A DNA stretch of 64,000 nucleotides from Asterias amurensis (Eukaryota > Echinodermata > Asteroidea > Forcipulatida > Asteriidae). The notes under the pieces were generated by a model, which saw nothing but the letters and a program-made list of their open reading frames with translations, made no database searches and was not told the DNA's origin. The translations under genes and the position numbers were made by a program. How positions within the stretch are numbered: position 1 is the first letter of the stretch; each line of letters starts with the position of its first letter. The stretch lies in assembly GCF_032118995.1 (NCBI RefSeq), contig NC_092649.1:19095832-19159831 (forward strand). The letters run 5' to 3'. Of this stretch, positions 14,253 to 42,600 are shown one piece after another.

Positions 14253-14324
14253 ATGGCCGCGCTGCCTTTAACCGAAGGAAATGTGGCGGACATTCTCCAG
14301 CACCATGGACGATTTGCTGTAAAG
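14253..14324 (+). CDS. receptor exon 1 (start codon)
   Basis: Encodes MAALPLTEGNVADILQHHGR and four further residues up to the donor 'gtaaag|gtaagt', phase 0. The Met context is favourable. The residues look like an amphipathic helix that continues into exon 2. I do not recognise a named domain. The open frame that runs past the donor to 14459 is intron. Confidence 0.65.
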
Positions 14325-17300
14325 GTAAGTACCAGAGTGTACTGGCACCAAACAAATTATAAATTAAAACAAAACTCCCAGCGCATGTCATTTTTTGTTT
14401 ATCAAGCCAGGTCCACGAATCTCATTTATGATGTTATATCAAGAAATCGAGGTCAATAATGTTCATCAGTTTTGCGAAGTCTTTTATATTGGTATTTGTA
14501 AAAGACCAGTCTTCTCACTTGGTGTATCTCAACATGTGCATGTAATAACAAACCTGTGAAAATTTGAGCTCACTTGGTCGTTGAAGTTGCGAGATAATAA
14601 TGAAAGAAAAAACACCCTTGTCACACGAAGTTGTGTGCTGTTAGACGCTTGATTTTGAGACCTCAAAATATATTTCTGAGGTCTCGAAATAAAATTCGTG
14701 GAAAATTGTTTCTTTTTCGAAAACTGCATTACTTCAGAGGGAGCCGTTTCTCACAATGTTTTATTATACCATCAACCTCTCCCCATTACTCATCGTCACC
14801 AAGTTAGGTTTTATGCTAATAACTATTTTCAGTAATTACCAATAGTGTCCACAGCCTTTATGTATTAGTAACTAAGATCAAGAAATTGTGGTCAGTAATG
14901 TTCAGTTTTGCGAAGTCTGTTCGCCACAGAACCCCCCCCCCCCCTCACCTTTCCTTTTATAGTATAACATAACTTACTGTACGAAGGTCACTGCAATGTA
15001 TGTATGCATGTATGAACATACACATTGGTCCTGCCTTTTTGTACTACTGATTTTACGGTTCCGAAACTGGCATTTTAATGCTGAATTATTTTTTGCTGAA
15101 TTCACAAAGGTCTTGAAAATCAGCGTATGTCAGTTTTATGATTTCAATAACTGAATAAAATATCATGGTGACGTTATTAACAAACATGCTTTCTTTAGCA
15201 GGTCATGGAAAAACAAAAGTAACTCTTAGCCGGGAGCAGTGATGCTCCTCAGTGATGTATACAAGGCCATGGTGATATGAAAATGGTAATTGTTCACCTA
15301 CATTACTTTCACATTGTAATGTCACACTCAGTCGAATCCTACATACCAACATTTACAATCAAGTTCATGTACACTATGTGGACACTGCATGCAGACGACT
15401 GAAAATGAGCTTTCCATTATTATGTGTTTTGATTGGTCCGAGGCATAGAGCTAATAGCTCTATGGTCCGAGGTGATGTTTTTCAGCTGCACCCAAATCAC
15501 CCCCAGACCAATCAAAACACAGATATGTAAAGCAATTTTTCACTGTACGTTTATCCAATGACATCATTGTATCCAATGAAATCACTGGTTTTGAAAACCA
15601 AGGAACTGTCTTTATCCTAGTCTTGAAATCAAGTCTGCAATATTGTTAAGCGCGGTGCTGCTACGGGGACGGTACACTCATCCTCGATCCCAGCATGTGG
15701 TACCCTGCCACGCGCCTACCTACGACCGTTGCATGAATGCAATGACCGTCTGTGACTGTTGCATAAGCGGCAGAATGTGTGTTTGTAACACATAGGTAGC
15801 GCCTAACGACGTGTCATTAAGACTATTATCATCCTTGCGGATAAGGACAGGGGCACAGTTTAGACTATTAAACATGAAACCATCATCAAAAACGTTTATT
15901 TCATTATCTCTCTCTCGTAAAAGGAATTCCTTAGACCTCTGCTGACCCTCAAGGATTTCAAAGATGCTAAGAGGGCTGCAAGAGTCAACTATGACCACTC
16001 TCTATCGAAGGCGGTCCCGAGGAAAAGAAGCATCCGGAAATCGAAGAGAAACGCATTTCTGTCTGCATTTACAACGAGGAAAACTGAAGGAAGGGCATCA
16101 ACAAATCTTGACAAGAGGGAGGAACTCCCAGCGTCTGACCACGCCCTGCTTGAAGTCACACAGGAAGGCCCAAGCAGGAGGTAATCCGTGGACAAAGTAC
16201 TTTAACACCAAAATGATTTCCTTGACTCTATAAACAAAAACCGATTGGGGTTTTTTTTACTAAAAAATTATGGCTTGTGTATTCTGTAGCCTCTTTTTGC
16301 AACTTAAAAACGTTTTATTTTTAACTTTTGTTTCAGTTTGTTTCAAGTCAAGGAACGGCAGATCCAGATATTCATTTCGAATTCAGTGAAGGAGACCCTC
16401 TGCCTACAACTTCATCCTTCAACTTCCATCTTAGGCTTAAAAGAAATAATCCAAGAAAAACTAGGCATCCCACAAAAGAAACAGCATCTTGTCACTAGGA
16501 AAGGCTTAGAGGTACGAACATAAATCATGTAAACGGCTGTTTAGACAGTATTATTTTTTAGGCCCTTGTATCTGTTCAGAGAGTGTAAAACGAGTTGTGC
16601 ATACTCAAACAGCCGTTGTATTGGGCTGCTTGTCTCCCTTGTCAAAACACTGCTGTACATTTTATTCAAATAAAGCCATCAAGAGGTTGCCTAGGTAACA
16701 TTTTGTTTTATATTTGTGATAATGCCTTTATGAAATTTCAGCCTCTGGCTCATGGGATTATTTGTGGGGACCATTGTCTACAGCCTTTCTTCGTAATGGT
16801 CGATCCCCTCCGCGGAATTCGTCGAAAATTACTTCTTTCTCGGAAACTACATTACTATAAAGGGAGCCGTTTCTCACAATGTTTTATACTATCAACAGCT
16901 TTCCATTGCTTGTTACCAAGTAAGTTTTTATGGTAACAATTATGTTAAGTAATTACCAAACCTTCATTTAACATTCTCTGCTTTGCGTTCTGTGGGTACT
17001 ACTATGGATTAATTCAACCTGAAGTCTGAACCTACAATCTAGATATCATCCTGAAATAAAACAACTACAATTTCTTCTTCTAGTCCTGCCTGTTATAATG
17101 CTGTGAATCTTCCCCCCCCCCCTCCTAAACAGCTTTGTGACAGAGTCTCCCTTCGGGACTACGGTATTCAGCAAGACACCAACCTAGACTTGCAGCTTGT
17201 TGCTGGCTTAATGGGTGGCACTAAAAAGAAACATTCAGGTAAACCAATTACTAAAGCCACTGGACATAATAATAATATTGTCAAAAGACCAACGCACTTG

Positions 17301-20300
17301 TTGTATCCCAACATGTGTATAAAATAACAAATTTTGACTGAATTCGTCATCGAAGTTGCAAGAGAGAATGATGAAAGAAAAACACCCCTGTTGCACAAAT
17401 ACAAATTTGTGTGCTTTCAGATGCCTCAACAAAAAGGTCCTAAAGTATTTTATTGTTTAAGTGAGAAATTACCTCTTTCTAAAAAACTATGTTACTTCAG
17501 AGGGAGCTATTTCTCACATTGTTTTATACTATCAACAGCTCTCCATTGCCCGTTACCAAGGAAGGTTTATTGCTAAAAATTATTCTGAGTAATATTACCA
17601 ATAGTGTCCACTGCCTTTAGCCACTGGCGCATGAATTGATCACCCTTTTTCAAGTAGACATTATCGTTTGTACATCGCACTTCAGACAGTTCAAAGAGTA
17701 TTTTGTTTATAAACAGGTCACAAGAAAAACAACGAGACATCGCCAACGCCAAGGGAAATGATCGAAGCAATGTACACCACTGTCAAAGAAAATGTTAATC
17801 TTCATACAGTACCACAAGCTATACACAAGCCAACTTCTCGTAAGAAGGCCACCCGCAGGAGCAGGAAGCGAGACGGCTCGAAACTTTCACTCAGTCCTCC
17901 TTCCCCTAACGAAACAGGAGACAGCGGTGAGGAAAAAAGAAGGAAGACAAATGAACCGGGGAGGACATCCTTTCAAGACGTCGAACCCAGAGCACACAGT
18001 GACTCTCATGAGAGGCAAGAAGAAACTATGAAATCAAGGAGTGCTTCCCCTGCCTCATCGAACAACTCCAAAAAATCCAAAGGCAGGAAAGGAACGAGTA
18101 GATCATCCCAACACCATAATGAATCCACAAGACCTGCCGAGCAGAAAGATAACTTAGAGCAATCTATTCGATTTCCCGGGAAAGGTTTTCAGAAAAGTAC
18201 TGAAATTGAGCCGTGCGTGACTTCTGCATCAGAAAATATCTCCAAGAAACCGAGAGGAAGGAAGAGAAGACGTAAAACAACTCCATCTCAAGACGAACTC
18301 AAAAGCCAGCGTGTTTCTGCAGAGAGAGCCAATGCACCTGCTTTGACTTCGGCTTCAGGAGCCATCCCTAAGAAAAGTAGAAAGGAAATCGAATGTCACG
18401 AGCCGCAAGATGCATCCAGAAAACAAGACCTTTATTCCTCCAGCTCTTCATCAACCGCAGACCCCTTCTTAAGGAAGTGTAGAAGAAAGAGCAAGTGTGG
18501 TAAAGAGGCAACCAAGATGCAAGCTGCACAAGTCGACAGACAGATCGACTCAGAGAAGTCCTTGGATATTACTACATGCAGAGCAGGAGACAGCAAGAAG
18601 ACTCGTAAAAGAACAAGAAAGAGACGTCATAAAAAATCCCCTCTTCAGGAAAATCAGAGTGAATCGATTGAAAGTCGAACCGACCCGACTCAACCCCCTC
18701 GTGTTTTACTTGGAGAAGATCGACAGTCTGAGACTAAAGATATCAGGCAACATGCAACGCGTCACCTCTTAACTAGTCGTTGTAACCGTGGGAAGCAGAC
18801 ATGTAATGAGGAACCGAATAGGACATCTAATGTGGAAGCAAAGAAGACATCTTATAAGAAACCGAAGAAGACATCTAATAAGGAACCGAAGAAGGCATCT
18901 AATGAGGAATTAAAGAAGACATCTAACGCGGAACGGAAGAAGACATCTAATGAGGAACCGAAGAAGACATCTAATGAAGAACCGAAGAAGACATCTAATG
19001 AAGAACCGAAGAAGACTTTTAATAAGGAACCGAAGAAGTCATCTAGTAAGGAACTGAAGAATGATTCAAACAAGACATCGAATGCAGAACCGATGAAGAC
19101 ACCTATAAATGATGAACCAAAGAACACATCTAGTGAGAAGACATCTAATGAGGAACCTAAGAAGACATCTAATGAGAAATCGAAGAAGACATCGAATGCA
19201 GAACCGATGAAGACACCTATAAATGATGAACTAAAGAAGGCATCTAGTAACGAACCAAAGAGTAATGAGGGACCGAAGAAGACATCTAAAAAGGAATCTA
19301 ATAAGACATCTAATGAAGAACCAAAGAAGACATCTAATGAAGACCCAAAGACGACATCTTATGAGAAAATGAAGAAGACATCTAAAGAGAAACCGAAGAA
19401 GACATCGAAGGAGGAACCGAAGAAGACATCTAATCAGGAACCAAACAAGACATCTTATATGAAACCGAAGATGAGCCGGCAACAATTTGGAAACAGTATC
19501 AATAAAATTCAAACTCTTCAAATCCACGGAGCCAACAAGAGCCCTATCTTTGTTGGGCCATGCACTGGGAGCTCAATACATTACGGTACAGGTATGTACT
19601 GTTGATAACTTTCTTTAGAGAATGTACAATATAATATCGAAGTCTTATTAGTGCACATATCTACCAAACAAGGTACTCAATGCGCTGAGTATAATACAAA
19701 GATAGCTAACTGCAGTGATTAATTTTGAGACCCAATTATTTAGCACCTTATAATAGTTTACAAGGTGCTACGGCGCATACAGCAGCCACCGCCAAGAACA
19801 CCGGGGCGAACCCCTTCTCTTTTCGAAAAGTGCACTGGGTTATTTTACATGCGTTACACAACACATGGGACCAACGGCTTTACGTCCCATCCGAAGGACG
19901 AAGCATTGGTTAAGTGTCTTGCTTAAGGCACGTGTCACGGCTGGGGATTCGAACCCACACTCTGCTGATCAGAAACACCAGAGTTTGAATTTTTTAGAGA
20001 GTGCACAATAAAATAAGACATCATTTTAAGTTTTGATTTACCTATTATATCCAATCAATTAGCCAACCAATGATGATGGTGTATCTCAACATATGCAAAA
20101 ATAACAAACCTGTGACAATTTGAACTCAATTGGTTGTCGAAGTTGCGAGATAATAATGGAATAAAAAACACCATTGTCACACGAAGTTGTGTGCTTTCAG
20201 ACGCTTGATTTCGGGACCTCAAAATCTAATTTTGAGGTCTCAAAATCAAATTCGTGGTAAATTACTTCTTTCTCATAAACTACGTTACTTCACATTACTC

Positions 20301-23300
20301 ACAATGTTTTATACTATCAACAGCTCTCCATTGCTCATTACTAAGTAAGTTTTTATGCTGATAATTAGTTTGAGTAATTATCCAATAGACACTAGACACT
20401 AGACACGGTTGGTAATTGTCAACGCACAACGCACAGTGTGTGTATCTCAACATATGCATAAAATAACCAACCTGTGAAAATTTGAGCTCAATTGCTGTCG
20501 AATTTACCAAGTAAGTTTTTATGCTAATAATTATTTTGAGTAATTACCAATAGTGTCCGGTGTCTTCAAAGACACTGGACACGGTTGGTAATTGTCAACG
20601 ACTAGCCTTTACAGTTGGTGTATCTCAACATATGCAAAAAATAACCAACCTGTGAAAATTTTATCTCAATTCGTCGTCGAAGTTACCAAGTAAGTTTTTA
20701 TGCTAATAATTATTTTGAGTAATTACCAATAGTGTCCGGTGTCTTTAAAGATTTAAAGAAAGCTGACCTTGAGAGACGTGACATTGAAGGTAAGACCAAC
20801 TATACATCTGTGTGTTTGATTGTTTGTTTGTCTGTTGTATTCATTAGGTAGAGCCACAGGAGAAGCACACGATCGCAGAGTTGCTGATATGGCAGAGAAG
20901 GCTCTAAAGACGGCTTACATAAGCAGAGGGGGTTTCGTTCAGCTCATTCCATGGGTGAGTGACGATAAAATGCACATCATGGACATCTACACGGAACTTG
21001 AGTTAAACAAAACAGACAAGCGCGACGAGGGCAAGATAAAATCCTACGAGGAGATTTTCCGCAAGTCAAGAGAGGGCTTTCTAATTAAACGTATGGTTCT
21101 GACTGGCACGGCTGGTTTGGGAAAGTCCACCCTGGTTGACAAAATGGCGTACGATTGGGCGATGGGTTCATGCAAGAAACTTGGAGAGTACAAACTTGTC
21201 TTTGTCCTGAAAATGCACGCACTTGAGCAAACCTCTCATTTTCTCGATGCTGTTTTTGATCAGATCCTAGACGAAACTTGCATCGAGAAGGCTGCGTTGA
21301 GCTCCTACATCAATACGAATCCAGACCAGGTTCTGATTCTTCTTGATGGTTTCGATGAGCTGATAACCACCTCGCTCAATGAGTGCGAATTTGGTTCCAT
21401 TTTGAAAATCCTAAACAGAAGGGAAGGCGCAGAATTTAGCGTCATCGTAACAACGCGGCCCTCGCATAATGACAAACTAGTGAGTAGAATCCTGATTGAA
21501 GAACCCGTTACGCGGGTAACGGTTCTTGGATTCAGTAAAGAATGCATTATGCAATATGTGTTCAAATTTTACTCGGCAGATCCTGAAAAGGCCCGGGGGC
21601 TTTTGGAGATTATTTTTTCCTCCACTGCTCTCTTTGATTTGGCAAATAGCCCTATGCTCTTGCTCTTAATGTGTATTCTATGGCGAGAGGAAAGCAGGCT
21701 CCCCGAAACCATGTCATCACTCTACAGAGAAGCGATGAGGTACATATTCATGCGAAAGGCAGACAGTACACCAGAAGATATGTCAAACCTGATTTTAGAA
21801 ATCGGAAAGGTAGCATTAGATGGTTTGCTCGCACCGAAGCAGATTCTTTCCTTTCCGGAGAATCTTTTTAAAAGTGGTGTTCTTTCTCTTGCCATCAGTG
21901 CAGGTATACTTAGCAGCCAGCGGGTCATGAAGCAGCTCGATACCCATAACAGTCTCATGTTCATTCACAAAACTTTTCAGGAGTACTGCGCGGCAATTTT
22001 CTTCCAACATCTTCAGCGAACTGGTGATGAAGAGTTGCAAAGAGTGGTTGATAAGATAGACCAAAAAAAGGGCAACATTACAGATCTGGACTATTTGCTA
22101 CGATTTTGTTGTGGAGACAATGAGGCATGCACAGTTATAATTTTGCGGATCGTACATAAGTATTTGTACTATTTTTGTACAGACTTGAGGTGGTTGCTTT
22201 TTTCTTGTTATTTTGAGTGTCAATCAAATTTCATTCCATCTGAGAAATTGATCTGGTCAGTAATTGGCGATGACCGATTACAATTTAATTGGTGTGGCAA
22301 AGACTTCGTTAACGCATTTATATACTTTCTGGAGCATGTACGTGTTGACTCAGACGGCAATGGAAACCATTACCTTCCCGAAGTCGAGGAAATTAGGTTA
22401 CATCAATGTGACTTAAAAAGCTTTGACGAACGTTTCGGACATGTGTTGGAAAGAATGACAAATATCAAATCATTGAAACTATACAGCTGCTCGTTAACGG
22501 CGAGCAACTTTAAATATATTGTATCGTCGCTTGAGAACGCAGACGAATTGGTCCAACTTGAGGTTAAAGGGAACGAAATGCTGAGTGGTTCCGCAAATAC
22601 ATTGCCGTCCAAATCAAAATGCCTAAAACGTCTTGAGATATTAGACATGTGTGAATGTCTGATGAGAGGTAATGACATGGACTTGCTGCTGCGTGAGATG
22701 ACCAACTTGGTAACGCTGTTGTTGTCTGGAAACGAATTCGGCAACTCTGCATTATTATTTGGCCCTCACTTGCAACAAATGCAACAACTGCAGCAGCTTG
22801 ACTTGAGTGACTGTCGTTTAAGAGGTGTCGACGCCGGACATATTGTTGTAGCAGTGAGCAGCACCATCATTGATCTGAACCTCTCCAAGAATAAAGGGTT
22901 GTGCGAAACAGCAAGACTGTGGGCTCCTTATCTTAACCGATTGAAACGTCTGCAGAAGCTGGGCTTGGGTTACTGTGCGTTGACAGGTACAGATGTGAAG
23001 TACGTGGATGCAAGCAGCTTGTTGGAACTGAACTTGACAGGTAACAATGAACTAGGGGGCTCTGCAGAGTTATGGTCCCCCACTTTAAAATGTATGACAA
23101 AACTGAATAGTTTGGCATTAGGTGGTTGTAACATACAAAGAAGTGACTTACCACATCTGAGAGATTTAGTGTGTTGTCTTCCTTCTATCGAAGAGTGTGT
23201 ATCAAGGATGTTCAGTATTATTCAACTTTGTCACAATCACATTAGGCTTGATTTAAAGAAACCTCTGACTGGTGAAGATACATCCATTGCTTTGAAAGCA

Positions 23301-25976
23301 CTGGAAAACACAAAATGTGCTTATGTCGAAGTGTCTGGTTCCGGATATGCCCCAGGGATCCTACAGACAAAGATGTGGTCTTCTTCTTTGCCGCTTGTGA
23401 AAAACCTCAGCAAGTTGAGTCTCAAAGGATGCTCTTTGAAGAGCAGGAACATCAAACACATTGCGAAGTCGATTTGTGACGCAACAAAACTGGTGCAACT
23501 GGATCTGTCAGAGAACCAAACGTTGGGTGGTGATGCGGTGGTATGGTGTCGTCAACTGAAGAAGTTGAAACGCCTCCAGAAGGTATTCTTTAAAAAGTGC
23601 TGCTTGAAGGGCCAAGACATGGAGCACTTGCTGGTGTCACTTGGGAAGCTTGATCAGTTGGTTGAGGTAGACCTCTCCGAAAACGATCAACTGAGTTGTT
23701 CGGCAACATTGTGGTCCTATCATCTCAAACACCTGACCAACCTCCAAACGCTCAAACTGACAGGTTGTAAGTTTCAGCCGCAAGATTTAAAAAGTCTTGT
23801 CCCATCAGTTCTTGATATGGTGAGTCTTGAGACATGTCACACTGGCATGCTAGACGTTAAGAAGACAACAAGTGGCACGACCGTGCACGTGAATGGGTGT
23901 TCTTCATTAACTGGGAGAGACCTGGCAGATCTGTTGAAGGCAATGGGTAAAAGGAGTGACCTGGTTGAGTTGAAACTCACAGATGTGAGCAATGTCATGG
24001 GGGAGACTCAAGCTGCCATATGGGCCCCTTATCTGAAAGAACTTACACACTTAAATCGGTTGAGTCTGAACAAGAATTCCAACCGAGGCAAGTATATCAG
24101 ACACGTTGCAAAGTGCTTAAGTAGCATGCCGTCTGTTGTCGAGTTGGACCTCTCAGATAACCACGTTCTCGGCGGCTCGGCAAGCTTATGGTACAGATAT
24201 TTGAAGCAAATGAAGCACCTCCGAAACCTCAATATGAGCTCTTGTAGACTGACAGGTGAAGACGTAAAGAACATGGCTCCTTCGCTGTGTGATAACATAA
24301 CACAGTTAGACCTTTCAATGAATTCCACTCTGAGTGGTTCAACCAGATCATGGGCATTATCCTTGAGAAAACTGAGCAACCTTAAATGGCTTACGGTAGA
24401 CAATTGTTCTTTAACCGGTGAAGATGTTACCGAAGCGGCTATATCCAGCAGCGGTATGGAACAACGCGAATGTTTTTTTTCTTTTGACAATGAAGTGGAT
24501 CCCTTAAGGGGCCGTTATCACTACAGAGAAGAATGTTGCAGAAGGTTTTGTTTTAGGCAAACAGGGCATGGTTTTACTGGCATGGTCTTGGACTTAAGGC
24601 AATGCTTTCTATCTCCGAGGCAAATTGCTCGTATTTTGGAGGCGATGGGAAAAAGAAATGACGTCGTAAAATTGCATCTGAATAAAAACAGAAATCTTCG
24701 AGGCTCGGCCGCAGATTGGTGCCCGTCTTTGGAACACTTGCAGCATCTCCAGAAGTTTGACTTTAGCGCCAACACACTGACTGCAGAAGATCTCAAACAA
24801 GTTTTGTTGTCATGTAGTTCTATCCCCAACTTGACTAAAGTGAATTTCTCATACAGTGAGGGCCTTGGTGGATCTGGTCATATCTGGGCCAAACACATCC
24901 ACAAATTGAAGAAACTTCAGAAACTTAAACTAGTTAGATTGTCACTGCAAAGCTGCGATGTGAAACCCGTGGCAAAATCGTTAAGCCGCATGCCCGAGTT
25001 GGTCGAGCTGGTTCTTTCAGAAAACTGGTCACTTGGTGGCTGTGCTTCTACGTGGGCACGATACTTAAGCAGAATGGTACACATTAAAGAGTTGATTCTA
25101 CACGATTGTTCCTTAATTGGAGAAGATGTAGAATACATTGCTGATGCAGTAGCCACCATGCCTAACTTGATTAAGTTGGATCTCTCACTCAACTCAACCC
25201 TTGGTGATTCAGACGCCTGTTGGTTAGACTTACGCAACATGGAACATCTCCAGAGTCTTAAGTTGGAATCTTGTAAATTGGTGGGAGGCGACATTGAAAA
25301 CATCATCGAGTCTGTAAGTGCTATGCCCGCACTGCAAGATCTGTGTCTGTCTTGGACAGCGGAAAACATACGCATCAATGTTTGGTCTAATCTCCATTTA
25401 ATGGTCCACTTAAACATGCTTGCCTTACGGGTCAACTCACGTGAAGAATTGAAGAAGGTTGCTAAATCCATCGGTAAAATGCCAAACTTGAAAGAACTTT
25501 CTCTTGGCTGTGACGGTTCAAAAATTGAGGGTTCTCAGGCGTGGAGACATCTCAGAAAGATGATGCATCTGAAGAAACTAAGCTTGTGTTGTTCCTCACT
25601 GAGAGATGCAGATATGGTTTATGTTGCTGCCATGCCGAGCTTGGTCGAGTTGGACCTGTCCAACAACCGTAATCTAACCGGCTCATCCATGGTTCATTTG
25701 AAGAGTATGACACAACTTGGGAAGTTGAGCTTACGTGAAAGCGGTCTGAATGGTGACGATTTGACTGCTATCTTCAAATCAGTAAATGAAATGACCACAT
25801 TAAGGGACTTGGATCTTTCTATGAATTACCAGCACGGTCAACCTGATGCTGTTGATTTGTATAATTTGAAGTACCTGGATAAGCTTTGTTTGAAACAGTG
25901 TTATCAATGCGAAGGTAGAGAAAGCATTACTACAATCAAAGAAAACTTAGCCGAATCAATCGAAGTGGAACTCTAA
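14253..25976 (+). CDS. Ubl-NACHT-LRR receptor, whole gene model
   Basis: Predicted exons: 14253-14324, 15924-16180, 16337-16511, 17133-17238, 17717-19591 and 20848-25976 (7,614 coding bases, 2,537 residues). A 39-base micro-exon at 20751-20789 may be added. Each junction has GT-AG and matching phase (0, 2, 0, 1, 1). Layout of the model: 1-110 unassigned basic region, 118-197 ubiquitin-like domain ending Gly-Gly, 200-828 Lys/Arg-rich low-complexity region, about 905-1200 NACHT ATPase, 1365-2537 leucine-rich repeats. NACHT-LRR proteins are cytosolic immune sensors that oligomerise on ligand binding. That role is inferred here from the family. The start codon has A at -3 and G at +4. The joining of the Ubl and NACHT parts rests on splice phase alone, and two adjacent genes is the alternative. 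Confidence 0.75.
14488..14862 (+). mobile_element. MITE family A in receptor intron 1
   Basis: Near-complete copy ending 'accaatagtgtccacagcc'. The left terminal 20 bases are degraded. Confidence 0.8.
14863..15923. other. remainder of receptor intron 1
   Basis: Holds a C-run (about 14932-14944) and an inverted repeat at about 15424-15525 (tgtgttttgattggtc and its complement, flanking 'gagctaatagctc'). No exon support. The minus-strand open frame 15720-15998 is the shadow of exon 2 plus intron. Confidence 0.5.
15924..16180 (+). CDS. receptor exon 2 (basic linker)
   Basis: Acceptor after a CT-rich tract (ctctctctcgtaaaag), donor 'caggag|gtaatc'. The frame reads EFLRPLLTLKDFKDAKRAAR, then a basic stretch (PRKRSIRKSKRN), ending in phase 2. 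It joins exon 1 (phase 0) and exon 3 without a shift, which is the main reason for the call. The frame opens at a stop just before the acceptor and closes just past the donor. No named domain recognised. Confidence 0.6.
16337..16511 (+). CDS. receptor exon 3: first half of the ubiquitin-like domain
   Basis: The acceptor is the strong 'ttttgtttcag' at 16336. After one split-codon base the frame gives ERQIQIFISNSVKETLCLQL, then SILGLKEIIQEKLGIPQKKQ and HLVTRKGLE. This follows the ubiquitin beta-grasp pattern: beta1 (QIFI), beta2 (ETLCLQL), the helix (LKEIIQEKLGIP) and beta3 (HLVTRKGLE). Donor 'gag|gtacga', phase 0. Similarity to ubiquitin is clear in pattern but modest in identity. Confidence 0.8.
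16790..16965 (+). mobile_element. MITE family A, 3' half, in intron 3
   Basis: Contains the 'attacttctttctcggaaac' to 'aagtaattaccaa' half only. The 5' half is missing. Confidence 0.7.
17133..17238 (+). CDS. receptor exon 4: second half of the Ubl, ending Gly-Gly
   Basis: Acceptor 'cctcctaaacag' after a long C tract. The frame reads LCDRVSLRDYGIQQDTNLDL, then QLVAGLMGG and TKKKHS. It aligns with the ubiquitin tail (L-S-D-Y-x-I-Q-x-x-x-x-L then a C-terminal Gly-Gly). The predicted Gly-Gly is residues 196-197. Donor 'cattcag|gtaaac' ends in phase 1. A Lys-rich extension after Gly-Gly resembles the layout of ubiquitin or FUBI precursors, which are cleaved after Gly-Gly. Cleavage here is inference. 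Confidence 0.8.
17255..17620 (+). mobile_element. MITE family A in receptor intron 4
   Basis: All main blocks are present, from 'gccactggacata' to 'accaatagtgtccactgcc'. The GAGGTCTC hairpin is reduced. The copy ends about 95 bases before the exon 5 acceptor. Confidence 0.75.
17717..19591 (+). CDS. receptor exon 5: basic, repeat-rich disordered region
   Basis: Acceptor 'tttgtttataaacag', donor 'gtacag|gtatgt', phase 1 at both ends (1,875 bases). It encodes about 625 residues that are almost all Lys, Arg, Ser, Thr, Glu, Pro and Asn, with nuclear-localisation-like clusters (RGRKRRRKTT, KKTRKRTRKRRHKK). From 18790 to 19480 a 24-base unit encoding PKKTSNEE-type octapeptides repeats, roughly two dozen copies with variants (KEPKKASN, AEPMKTPIND). 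No globular domain. It links the Ubl to the NACHT domain. The long minus-strand open frames here are repeat shadows. Confidence 0.8.
18790..19480 (+). repeat. 24-bp coding minisatellite
   Basis: Unit close to acatctaatgaggaaccgaa plus gaag, 24 bases or 8 codons, so copy-number change keeps frame. The units are most alike around 18930-19010 and more varied toward the 3' side, where a longer sub-block (AEPMKTPINDE) is itself duplicated (19081 and 19195). Confidence 0.9.
19620..19995 (-). mobile_element. tRNA-derived SINE in receptor intron 5
   Basis: Contains the 'cttattagtgcacatatcta' block, the 'cccatccgaaggacg' block and, on the minus strand, a B-box-like ggttcgaatcccc. The same family occurs at 41680-41800, 61690-61920 and 63180-63485. 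Its minus-strand head resembles a Leu/Ser tRNA. Confidence 0.65.
20066..20392 (+). mobile_element. MITE family A copy, receptor intron 5
   Basis: Has the mid blocks and the GAGGTCTC hairpin. It is truncated at the left and lacks about 40 bases near the right end. Confidence 0.75.
20393..20750 (+). mobile_element. two tandem, internally deleted MITE family A copies
   Basis: 20393-20570 and 20568-20750 are near-identical ~175-base versions in which the family A ends are joined at 'gtcgaa(t/g)ttaccaagtaag', missing the central 200 bases. The last bases (gtctttaaag) touch the candidate micro-exon. Confidence 0.8.
20751..20789 (+). CDS. candidate cassette micro-exon
   Basis: 39 bases, phase 1 at both ends, strong donor (gaag|gtaaga). 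It would add DLKKADLERRDIE before the NACHT exon without changing frame. The acceptor is the 'tttaaag' end of a MITE and has a weak pyrimidine tract, so use is uncertain. Confidence 0.4.
20848..25976 (+). CDS. receptor exon 6: NACHT ATPase and leucine-rich repeats
   Basis: Acceptor after a T-rich tract (ttgtattcattag). Reads without a stop for 1,708 residues to TAA at 25974. NACHT features: P-loop GTAGLGKST (model residues 915-923), Walker B VLILLDGFDEL (990-1000), sensor-like VIVTTRPS (1028-1035), winged-helix motif FIHKTFQEYCAAIFF (about 1200). Such ATPases bind ATP/ADP and drive oligomerisation of the sensor. From about 22380 on come ribonuclease-inhibitor-like LRRs, mostly in pairs: LVxLDLSxNxxLGGSAxxW followed by LxxLxLxxCxLxxxDV. 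Non-LRR linkers near 23190, 23850 and 24470 split the array into blocks. No signal peptide or membrane segment, so an intracellular protein. Closest relatives by pattern are echinoderm and amphioxus NLRs. Confidence 0.95.
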
Positions 25977-39668: not shown

Positions 39669-42600
39669 TTAAGTGCAGATTTTGTCTTTCAGCAACAGGT
39701 CCCAGTTGATCTGCGTCGTAAAGACTTCCCGATCCAGCCACACCTCGTAGAAGTGTCGGAACTCCTCCGATAGATCGATCTTCTGGCTGAGAACACTCTG
39801 CAGGTTGTTGTCGACCGGCATGTACTCCGGATCTTTCGTGTTGGTCTGATCGTAGCGTCTGGTGTTGAAACGATCGACGCAAACACGCAGGGCACACTCC
39901 TCCGCTTGGAAATCCCACGGCCGCGCATCCATATCTGAAAAAGGATTGGGAAGAAAACGTGATGAATTTCAAAACCTCCATCGTATTGCCAAGGAGGCCA
40001 AAAAAAACTTTAAGAAGTCGTAGACTTTATTCAAATAATTATTATAATCGGGATTGGAAAAATTCATTGAGCAAATTAAATGGAAGATTATTAACAACAC
40101 TAAGTATTCAAAATGAATTAAGATTAAAGACAAATAAACTAATATATACCTAAATGTATCATAAACAATACTCTACCTAAACAAGAAAAAAAAAAAATAA
40201 TAATAATAATAATAAAAATAATATTCTTTTGATGCAAATTTAACATCTCTTATAATACTCTACCTATTATATATATCGGTTCAGCATTGGTATACACCAA
40301 TGCTAATGATATAGTAATGCCTAAATACTAAAGTCAACAACAAATTAACATTACTAAAAACAGTCATAAAACTAATGTTAAGAGGTTGTAATATAAACAA
40401 TACACAGTGGGAAAAACTAAAAGAGAAACTGCAGTAAAAATCACAATAAAAATTGAAATGAAAATCACAGTAGAAATCACAGTCAAAACACATCAAAAAT
40501 CACAGCAGAAATTGCAGTAGATTCACAGTGAAAATCACAGTAAAAATCACAATTTAAATCACTGCAAAAATCACACTTAAAATAACAGTGGAAATCACAG
40601 TAAAAACACATCAAAAGTCATCAAAAAATTACAATGAAAATCACAGTAGAAATCACAGTAAAAAAGCACACCAAAAATCACAGTAAAAAACACATCAAAA
40701 GTAGAAATCACAGTGAAAAATCACAGTAAAATACACAATGAAAATCACAGCAAAAATCACATCAAAATCACAGTAGAAATCACATCAAAAATCAAAGTAG
40801 AAATCACATCAAAAATCACAGTAGGAATCACATCAAAAATCACAGTAAAAAACACACCAGAAAATCACAGTGAAAATCATAGCAAAAATCGCAGTAAAAT
40901 CACAGTAAATATCGCAGTAAAATCACAGTAAAATCACAGTAAAAATCTGAATAAAAATCACAGTAAAGTCACAGTAAAAACCTCAGCAAAAATCACAGTA
41001 AAATACACAGCAAGATCACAGTATAAATGCTAAAAAGTAGTTAATAACCTCATGTTCCGACCGTAGCAGAATCTTTCTCAAAGGCTCAAAAGAGAAAGAT
41101 TCTGCTAAGGTCAAAACAACAGGCCATACTAACTTTTTTGCATCTTAGTAGCCCCAACAAGAGAAAATATTCTCACCGTTGCCGTACACCCAGTCATCGT
41201 TCAGACGATGGCGGACCTTCTGATAGATTGCTGACATTGTCTTCATGTTGCTCTTCCGCCATTGTCTCCCGAGGTATTTGGTTTGCACCTTAAGGAGTTT
41301 GAGAACGTAAACCTGCATCATGGCTTGCTTGACCTTCAAGGCTCTCTTTAAGATCGGCGCAGACTTGAAGACAACCAGCATCTGGTAACGTCAAAGAGGA
41401 TTTATAATAATATACCGTTCTTATAAGTGTAGTGGTGACATGGCAGGTGGTTTAGAGCATTTTTTTTTTCCTCATTTTTTTTCCACATTTTTTTTATGCA
41501 AGTCTCCAGACACACAAGGTCTGAAGGCCACTTCAAGGTATGGGCTAAAATTATGTTTTGTCCAGAGACCGTTGCCACCTTCTCTTAGGTTTGAAACAGG
41601 GTTACACACTTTACAGTCCATACGGATGTAGGCTTGGGTATCATTGGTCCAAAGCCTGGCCGGTAGAGCAGAAAGCACTACCTCCCCAATTTTACGTAGC
41701 AAGTGTCACGACCAGCATTCAAACCCACACTCTGCTGATCAAACACCGGAGCTTGAATTCGGTGCTCTTAACCGCTCAGCCACGACACGCCACAGTTCTG
41801 CTGGATAAGTCATCAGAGTTTGGGTCTGAATCCCAGTCATGAGCAAAAACTATAATTGCTTCTCTTCACCCAGGGGTATGAATGGGTGCCTGCGAGGGTA
41901 GAGGTGGATCTGATGTATAAAAAAACCTCTGGAGCGCCGTGGCAGCCTAAAGCTGTATACTCCCTAGGAAGCTGAGAAAGATTAAAGGATGTTATTGCCC
42001 AATGACCAGGGCATTAATGTAAAGTGCATAAGCCTTTTTGAGGTATGGCGGACGTGATTGATGCCACTCTCACCATGTTGGTGGTCATTAGGTTTACATG
42101 TAAACAAACATAGTCCCACATACCTTACAGGAAAGTTCTGTATGTTCAAGCACCTTAAGTGTCACTGAATAACGGATATGCGCACTGTATAAGAAGCCAC
42201 TATTATTATTATGTTGCCAGCTTACCATAGTTCTGGAGTGTTTCCATTTGGTGAGTTTGTTGAGGATTCTCAGCAGGTTGATGCAAGAGAAGAGATTCCG
42301 CCAACAGTAAGGAGAAGTGTCACCAGCTTCCTATAAACAAAAAAAACAAGCAAATTATTTGGATGATTATATAAATTTGAATTTGTTTATTTAAAGGTCG
42401 GTACACCTTCGGTAATTGCCAAAGACCAGTGTTCTCACTTGGTGTATACCATCGTAAGCATAAACTAACAAGCCTGTGAAAAGTTGGGCTCAATCGGTCA
42501 TCCTCAAATCTTTTGGTCTTTCGACATAGTAGTCAGACCCTGCCTGAGTGATTTTGGATAATTTGAGGGTTCAGAGGGTGGCAAGGATCACAAAGGGTCA

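What the first reader, a model, noticed from the sequence alone, without database searches (positions are those of the whole stretch)
14253..25976. A ubiquitin-like domain fused to a NACHT-LRR immune sensor
Exons encoding a ubiquitin fold (16337-16511, 17133-17238), a long basic linker (17717-19591) and a NACHT-LRR (20848-25976) join with matching phases at all five junctions (0, 2, 0, 1, 1). Known invertebrate NLRs mostly carry death-fold N-terminal domains. I do not know of one with an N-terminal Ubl. The order suggests a sensor whose signalling module is a ubiquitin mimic.
Basis: partly seen in the sequence, partly recalled or inferred. Interest (0 to 1): 0.88.

Follow-up and report, generated by a model that had tools for sequence, protein, structure and literature searches.

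The report
Sea-star immune sensor carrying ubiquitin domain
A sea-star immune-sensor gene appears to begin with a ubiquitin-like domain, as do other sensor genes in the same genome, and the domain keeps the short tail at which ubiquitin precursors are normally cut, so these animals may have wired pathogen sensing to the ubiquitin system.

Summary
Six exons splice with GT/AG sites in phases 0,2,0,1,1 into one 2537-residue frame: conserved N-terminal motif, ubiquitin-family domain (Pfam 33.7 bits), low-complexity lysine-rich linker, NACHT, LRRs. Contig lengths identify the genome as Asterias amurensis. The fusion is not a one-off: a query for the second Ubl exon finds 24 copies genome-wide, and 19 of 24 have a NACHT match within 10 kb downstream on the same strand, against 0 in both controls. 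Database predictions from four sea-star species agree (22 of 35 Ubl proteins also carry NACHT). New here: the last or only Ubl keeps LxGG, the cleavage-type tail of ubiquitin precursors, in 34 of 35 proteins (test blind to the tail) and in 23 of 23 other genomic exons; the first Ubl of tandem forms lacks it in 12 of 13. That favours a cut, perhaps conjugated, module over a plain docking mimic, but no processing is demonstrated, and several ubiquitin contact residues are changed. Exon 1 has no homologue support; no transcripts were available. In the paper listings seen, none described Ubl-NACHT receptors. A new sea-star variant of the NLR kind.

The parts
14253..14324 (+). Exon 1 (proposed start codon, 24 codons, phase 0 donor AAG|GTAAGT)
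   Evidence: Open frame and consensus donor; no homologue support in the alignments. Some upstream coding exon is needed because exons 2-3 have no Met.
15924..16180 (+). Exon 2: conserved N-terminal motif (..VNYDHSLSKAVPRKRSIRKSKRNAFLSAF..)
   Evidence: Continuous alignment with P0001, P0012, P0130, P0129; similar motif by eye in Patiria and Acanthaster members; no Pfam match
16337..16511 (+). Exon 3: first half of the ubiquitin-like domain
   Evidence: Pfam PF00240 and PDB ubiquitin matches
17133..17238 (+). Exon 4: second half of the ubiquitin-like domain plus GLMGG-TKKKHS
   Evidence: Alignment to ubiquitin runs across the exon 3/4 junction; 24 copies of this exon type in the genome, window included
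17205..17219 (+). GLMGG at the end of the Ubl (LxGG cleavage-type motif)
   Evidence: LxGG after 34 of 35 last/only Ubls in the protein set, window included, and in 23 of 23 other genomic copies of the exon
17717..19591 (+). Exon 5: long low-complexity lysine/serine/threonine-rich linker, no Pfam domain
   Evidence: ends with the pre-NACHT motif
18792..19471 (+). 24-bp tandem repeat (28.2 units, 72% matches) within the linker exon
   Evidence: Tandem Repeats Finder
19507..19587 (+). Pre-NACHT motif IQTLQIHGANKSPIFVGPCTGSSIHYG
   Evidence: Motif HMM finds it in 24 of 140 proteins (9 of them its seeds, window among them), 0 of 140 shuffled; sits before NACHT in related proteins
20848..25976 (+). 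Exon 6: NACHT and LRR region with stop codon
   Evidence: In a 1718-codon open frame; Pfam NACHT and LRR
21090..21578 (+). NACHT domain (Pfam PF05729 match)
   Evidence: E 1.4e-23, 83.9 bits against cut-off 26.7; Walker A and B present
22410..25970 (+). Leucine-rich repeat region (start by eye; the best Pfam stretches lie within about 24210-25961)
   Evidence: LRR_14, LRR_4, LRR_8, LRR_1, LRR_6 above cut-off

Best explanation
The window holds one gene for an intracellular NLR-type sensor of the sea star Asterias amurensis whose N-terminal module is a ubiquitin-family domain. It belongs to a multi-copy family seen in four sea-star species (gene structure and recurrence shown from sequence). Proposed mechanism: in the resting protein the LRRs hold NACHT inactive; ligand binding lets NACHT bind ATP and oligomerise, clustering the Ubl modules on long linkers (inferred from NLR biology). 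The module is a precursor of the ubiquitin/Fubi type: a deubiquitinase-like protease cuts after the conserved LxGG, either during synthesis or on clustering, freeing the N-terminal motif plus Ubl (plus a Death domain in some sister proteins), which then acts as a modifier or mobile signal (inferred; motif conservation shown, cutting and conjugation not shown).
For: Fusion: in-frame splicing with an intact 2537-residue frame; alignment with related proteins across the Ubl junctions; 19 of 24 genomic copies of the second Ubl exon, window included, followed by a same-strand NACHT match at 2,962-7,440 bp, against 0 upstream on the same strand and 0 downstream on the opposite strand. Ubl identity. 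Tail: with a Ubl core model that omits the last nine columns, LxGG follows 34 of 35 last/only Ubls and 1 of 13 earlier Ubls; background 36 LxGG in 130,409 residues of the 105 proteins without a core match. In 25 Ubls under 90% identical, picked from 34 full-length tailed ones, mean pairwise identity is 52% and 7 of 82 columns are invariant, 4 of them in GLxGG. The residue after GG is G, T, A or R in 36 copies, never Pro. Genomic exons: LxGG in 23 of 23. Short predicted proteins ending soon after LxGG: P0131, P0132, P0135.
Against: No transcript, peptide or cleavage data. In the alignment ubiquitin Arg72, an E1 contact (recalled), is Gly, and the stretch before the tail is two residues longer, so the fit to E1 or proteases is uncertain. 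The short proteins are gene predictions; in one subfamily the stop after APTRE lies in or next to the intron donor, so it may be an accident. GG could be a flexible hinge. 13 of 35 database proteins with the Ubl have no NACHT in their precomputed Pfam lists, and 5 of 24 genomic exon copies have no NACHT match within 10 kb; one of the 19 that do rests on a weak 40-residue match (E 7.6e-4). No close orthologue of the window gene was listed (best whole-exon match 37%). The genomic exons were found with a query containing GG and many are near-identical copies, so 23 of 23 is weaker than the blind count; the set was also drawn with a model holding the tail.
Confidence: 0.45

Rival explanations
1. 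Uncut docking module: NACHT oligomerisation clusters Ubl domains into an array that mimics a polyubiquitin chain and recruits ubiquitin-reading adaptors, as reported for the tandem Ubls of OASL with RIG-I.
Against: Docking does not need LxGG, yet it is among the best conserved parts; L8 and H68 of the usual binding patch are changed in the window copy (read).
Confidence: 0.33
2. The Ubl is a regulatory or stability element (for example proteasome or chaperone contact controlling NLR levels); signalling runs through the pre-NACHT motif or, in sister proteins, through Death domains.
For: The pre-NACHT motif is shared by NLRs with and without Ubl; several sister proteins add Death domains; the long linker separates Ubl from NACHT.
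Against: Does not by itself explain LxGG in the last Ubl and its absence from 12 of 13 earlier Ubls.
Confidence: 0.15
3. Non-functional relic or drifting copy of the family.
For: No close orthologue listed; no match to the family set in the rest of the window or in 10 kb on either side.
Against: All six exons open, all splice sites GT/AG, Walker motifs present.
Confidence: 0.04
4. Two separate genes or a mis-joined prediction: a Ubl gene lies by chance upstream of an NLR gene.
For: No RNA evidence available; exon 6 has an internal Met (residue 843) before NACHT that could serve as a start; exon 1 unsupported.
Against: Same order at 19 of 24 places genome-wide with 0 in both controls; 22 of 35 predicted Ubl proteins from four sea-star species also carry NACHT; matching phases.
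Confidence: 0.03

Closest known systems
Death-NACHT-LRR receptors (NLRD) of sea urchin and amphioxus (passages of PMC11508797)
   Same: NACHT-LRR sensor with an N-terminal interaction domain, expanded families
   Different: N-terminal domain is a death fold, not a Ubl; some sea-star sister proteins carry both
OASL (2'-5'-oligoadenylate synthetase-like; passages of PMC6019448)
   Same: Innate immune protein fused to Ubl domains that are not ubiquitin itself
   Different: Two C-terminal Ubls on an OAS-like domain, no NACHT; its tail was not compared here
Fubi-eS30 (FAU) (passages of PMC10611586; listing of PMC8354635)
   Same: Ubl made as an N-terminal fusion with a Gly-Gly joined to a partner; cut by USP36
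   Different: Partner is a ribosomal protein, not an immune NTPase; cutting shown there, only inferred here
Bacterial EAD1-Ubl fusions of FtsH-ternary conflict systems (passages of PMC7159879)
   Same: A death-like adaptor joined to a Ubl in an NTPase-based conflict system, with release by a peptidase predicted by its authors
   Different: Bacterial operons with their own Ubl-conjugation and JAB genes; a parallel, no homology shown here
Crinkler (CRN) proteins (passages of PMC5289972)
   Same: Ubl-fold header domain, in many of them in front of an NTPase
   Different: Secreted effectors; no NACHT-LRR; tail not compared here

Membership tests
NLR (NACHT-LRR, STAND NTPase) | NACHT domain | tested here: met
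   PF05729 83.9 bits, cut-off 26.7
NLR (NACHT-LRR, STAND NTPase) | Walker A and Walker B motifs | tested here: met
   GTAGLGKST and LLDGFDE present
NLR (NACHT-LRR, STAND NTPase) | C-terminal LRRs | tested here: met
   LRR_14, LRR_4, LRR_8 above cut-off
NLR (NACHT-LRR, STAND NTPase) | Ligand-driven oligomerisation | not testable with these tools
   Needs protein
NLRD (Death-NACHT-LRR) | N-terminal death-fold domain | tested here: not met
   No Death match at E up to 1 in the N-terminal part, the linker or exon 6 (Pfam only)
Ubiquitin family (beta-grasp) | Sequence match above the family cut-off | tested here: met
   PF00240 33.7 bits, cut-off 25.4; PDB ubiquitin fusions E about 1e-9
Ubiquitin family (beta-grasp) | Ubiquitin fold | tested here: met
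Processed or conjugated Ubl modifiers | Gly-Gly after the fold | tested here: met
   LxGG in the window at 17208-17219; 34 of 35 last/only Ubls
Processed or conjugated Ubl modifiers | Arg72 of ubiquitin (E1 contact, recalled) | tested here: not met
   Gly in the window by the alignment; other modifiers also differ from ubiquitin here (recalled)
Processed or conjugated Ubl modifiers | Cleavage and conjugation | not testable with these tools
   Needs biochemistry
OASL-type polyubiquitin mimic | Tandem Ubls | tested here: not met
   One Ubl in the window protein; two in 13 of the 35 database members
NLRs with amyloid signalling motif | Short motif next to NACHT shared with an effector protein | tested here: inconclusive
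   Motif conserved; the one effector-like candidate tested, P0134, scores weakly: 14 of 500 shuffles as good
NLRs with amyloid signalling motif | Amyloid formation | not testable with these tools
   Needs peptide

The most novel reading that the evidence does not exclude
Sea stars evolved immune sensors that are also precursors of a private ubiquitin-like modifier: the NLR carries at its N-terminus a Ubl (in some sister proteins with a Death domain) ending in LxGG, which is cut off and conjugated to targets on or before pathogen sensing. That would couple NACHT sensing directly to protein tagging, parallel to the bacterial EAD1-Ubl systems.
Probability: 0.3. Interest if true: 0.93.

Novelty: new variant of a known kind. 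Interest (0 to 1): 0.78.

Why it matters
Animal NLR signalling is mostly described in terms of death-fold domains (CARD, PYD, Death). A sea-star family that uses a ubiquitin-family domain instead, and conserves its cleavage-type tail, suggests another way out of the sensor: through the ubiquitin system. It is directly testable in sea stars, and it bears on how echinoderms signal from a large NLR set (63 NACHT matches to this query alone in this genome, some of them fragments).

Tried and rejected
Chance or mis-join: rejected by the same-strand pairing of Ubl and NACHT exons. Death domain hidden in the linker or N-terminus: no Pfam match. The single-sequence model of P0134 was poor (mean pLDDT 35.8) and not used; its TRADD-like match is below the Pfam cut-off (19.7 against 23.7 bits). 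The pre-NACHT motif in P0134 is weak (14 of 500 shuffles as good). Of the other PF00240 matches in the genome (29 matches), those in stretches of C19, C9, C15 and C6 were fetched and gave no match to ten family queries at E 1e-4; the rest were not followed. Family matches elsewhere in the window or in 10 kb on either side: none at E 1e-3. Eight other ORFs of 110 aa or more in the window have no Pfam match above cut-off; the rest of the window was not annotated. Plant or fungal Ubl-NLR precedents were not searched beyond the paper searches. Paper searches; I saw only their listed rows (for the Ubl-NLR question 1 of 1, 20 of 67, 20 of 70, 20 of 43, 15 of 23 and 10 of 18). Of papers I saw listings and the passages returned by find; none was read whole.
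Full report

Which organism. Contig lengths given for the window's genome (C19 15,767,093; C6 26,310,238; C18 17,110,720) equal the contig lengths listed for A. amurensis proteins P0004, P0021 and P0101. The window lies at C2:19,095,832-19,159,831. So I take it as Asterias amurensis. C2 is 30,808,926 bp, close to but not equal to the 30,813,796 listed for P0001; I draw no conclusion from that.

Is the fusion real. Residues 25-204 of the window protein align with P0001, P0012, P0130 and P0129 through the exon 2/3 and 3/4 junctions and up to 4/5. The end of exon 5 encodes a motif (IQTLQIHGANKSPIFVGPCTGSSIHYG) that in other sea-star NLRs also sits shortly before NACHT. The strongest test does not depend on gene models. 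A query with the window NACHT gives 63 matches in the genome (a lower bound, some being fragments of one place), and a query with the exon 4 equivalent of P0001 gives 24 (window included). Of the 24, 19 have a NACHT match within 10 kb downstream on the same strand (2,962 to 7,440 bp); the controls upstream on the same strand and downstream on the opposite strand both give 0. One of the 19, at C2:5,016,499, rests on a weak 40-residue NACHT match. The five without are two on C14 and three on C18; one of the latter has NACHT matches further away. Conversely 20 of 63 NACHT matches have an exon-4 copy upstream, so the Ubl type is a part of the family, not all of it. In 23 of 23 fetched copies the exon begins directly after an AG. 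The first Ubl half was seen upstream in 11 of 23; only 700 bp upstream (1,000 for one) had been fetched.

The family in other species. Of 154 homologues of exon 6, 120 were listed; the set reached 139 proteins, plus the window. A Ubl model built from ten members finds 49 Ubl domains in 36 of these 140. The 35 database proteins come from Asterias amurensis, A. rubens, Patiria miniata and Acanthaster planci, spanning Forcipulatida and Valvatida. By their precomputed Pfam lists 22 of the 35 also carry NACHT; the other 13 were found by the searches aimed at the N-terminal part and may be separate genes, short isoforms or incomplete models. Brittle-star, sea-urchin and sea-cucumber NACHT proteins in the list carried no Ubl by Pfam or by my model, but the searches were not designed to find them, so absence outside sea stars is not shown. 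Some members have two Ubls and Death domains.

The tail. In ubiquitin the fold ends in Leu-x-Gly-Gly, the site where precursors are cut. With a Ubl core model that leaves out the last nine columns, LxGG follows within 16 residues in 34 of 35 last-or-only Ubls, window included (exception P0133), but in 1 of 13 earlier Ubls (P0046). The 105 proteins without a core match hold 36 LxGG in 130,409 residues. Among 25 Ubls under 90% identity, picked from 34 full-length tailed ones (mean pairwise identity 52%), 7 of 82 columns are invariant and four of these are the G, L, G, G of GLxGG; that set was drawn with a model that includes the tail, so the blind count is the fair one. At the DNA level 23 of 23 other exon-4 copies encode LxGG, but the query held GG and many copies are near-identical within clusters on C2 and C18, so they are few independent events. 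The residue after GG is never Pro in 36 copies. Short predicted proteins stop soon after the tail (P0131 APTRE, P0132 GPKGRV, P0135 GSLGNYIGA). In one subfamily 10 of 11 genomic copies read APTRE or APKRE and stop if the intron is kept, but the stop lies in or next to the intron donor sequence, so I give this little weight.

How it may work. NLR biology gives the frame: LRR sensing, NACHT oligomerisation, clustering of N-terminal modules. For the module itself I rank cutting after LxGG above plain docking, because docking does not explain why the tail is so well conserved and why 12 of 13 earlier Ubls lack it. Against this, several ubiquitin contact residues are changed in the window copy by the alignment (L8 to S, H68 to D, R72 to G; K48 and K63 also lost), and nothing has been shown experimentally. 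Precedents: Fubi-eS30 is made as a fusion and cut by USP36 (passages of PMC10611586; listing of PMC8354635); OASL Ubls mimic polyubiquitin (passages of PMC6019448); bacterial EAD1-Ubl proteins are predicted to be released by a JAB peptidase (passages of PMC7159879).

What is known. The rows listed by paper searches hold no paper whose title or abstract start describes Ubl-NACHT receptors. A 2024 survey of metazoan NLRs has no occurrence of ubiquitin in its main text, the A. amurensis genome paper none of NLR or NACHT, and the 2021 TRADD-N paper mentions Ub-system domains with TRADD-N in marine invertebrates but not this architecture in the passages seen. Most subscription papers and all supplements were out of reach. 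The proteins exist in public databases as uncharacterised or NLRC-like predictions.

Verdict. A recurrent NLR architecture, seen so far in sea stars, with an unexpected conserved processing-type tail. Category: new variant of a known kind. The mechanism is open and testable.

Noticed in passing
19507-19587 and related proteins: Conserved motif of about 27 residues just before NACHT (roughly I-x-V-x-G-x-N-P-x-F-x-G-P-x-x-G-x-T-F), in NLRs with and without Ubl; its placement recalls the amyloid signalling motifs of fungal NLRs. 24 of 140 proteins (9 seeds included), 0 of 140 shuffled.
   Followed up: partly
L029-L039 (C18, C3, C20 copies): In 10 of 11 copies of one subfamily (not L039), keeping the intron after Ubl exon 4 gives a stop five residues after Gly-Gly (APTRE or APKRE), as in the short predicted protein P0131; the stop lies in or next to the donor sequence.
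   Followed up: partly
P0134 (Patiria miniata, 332 aa): LxGG-ended Ubl followed by a TRADD-like N-terminal region without NACHT (19.7 bits, below the Pfam cut-off of 23.7), a possible partner protein.
   Followed up: partly
P0041, P0055, P0033, P0044, P0028: Related sea-star NACHT proteins with a hydrophobic, membrane-anchor-like stretch before NACHT (seen by eye).
   Followed up: no
window 14500-14900, 16790-16990, 17330-17620, 20050-20750: Introns and intergenic sequence carry several copies of one repeat by eye (GTGTATCTCAACATATGCA.. to ..AATTACCAATAGTGTCC), including a 179-bp tandem pair at 20394-20751.
   Followed up: no
G000 C9:20053054-20055549: Polyubiquitin gene with 11 equally scoring ubiquitin units in an 851-codon frame.
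   Followed up: no
window 40432-41028: A 12-bp tandem repeat of about 51 units (CAGTAAAAATCA).
   Followed up: no
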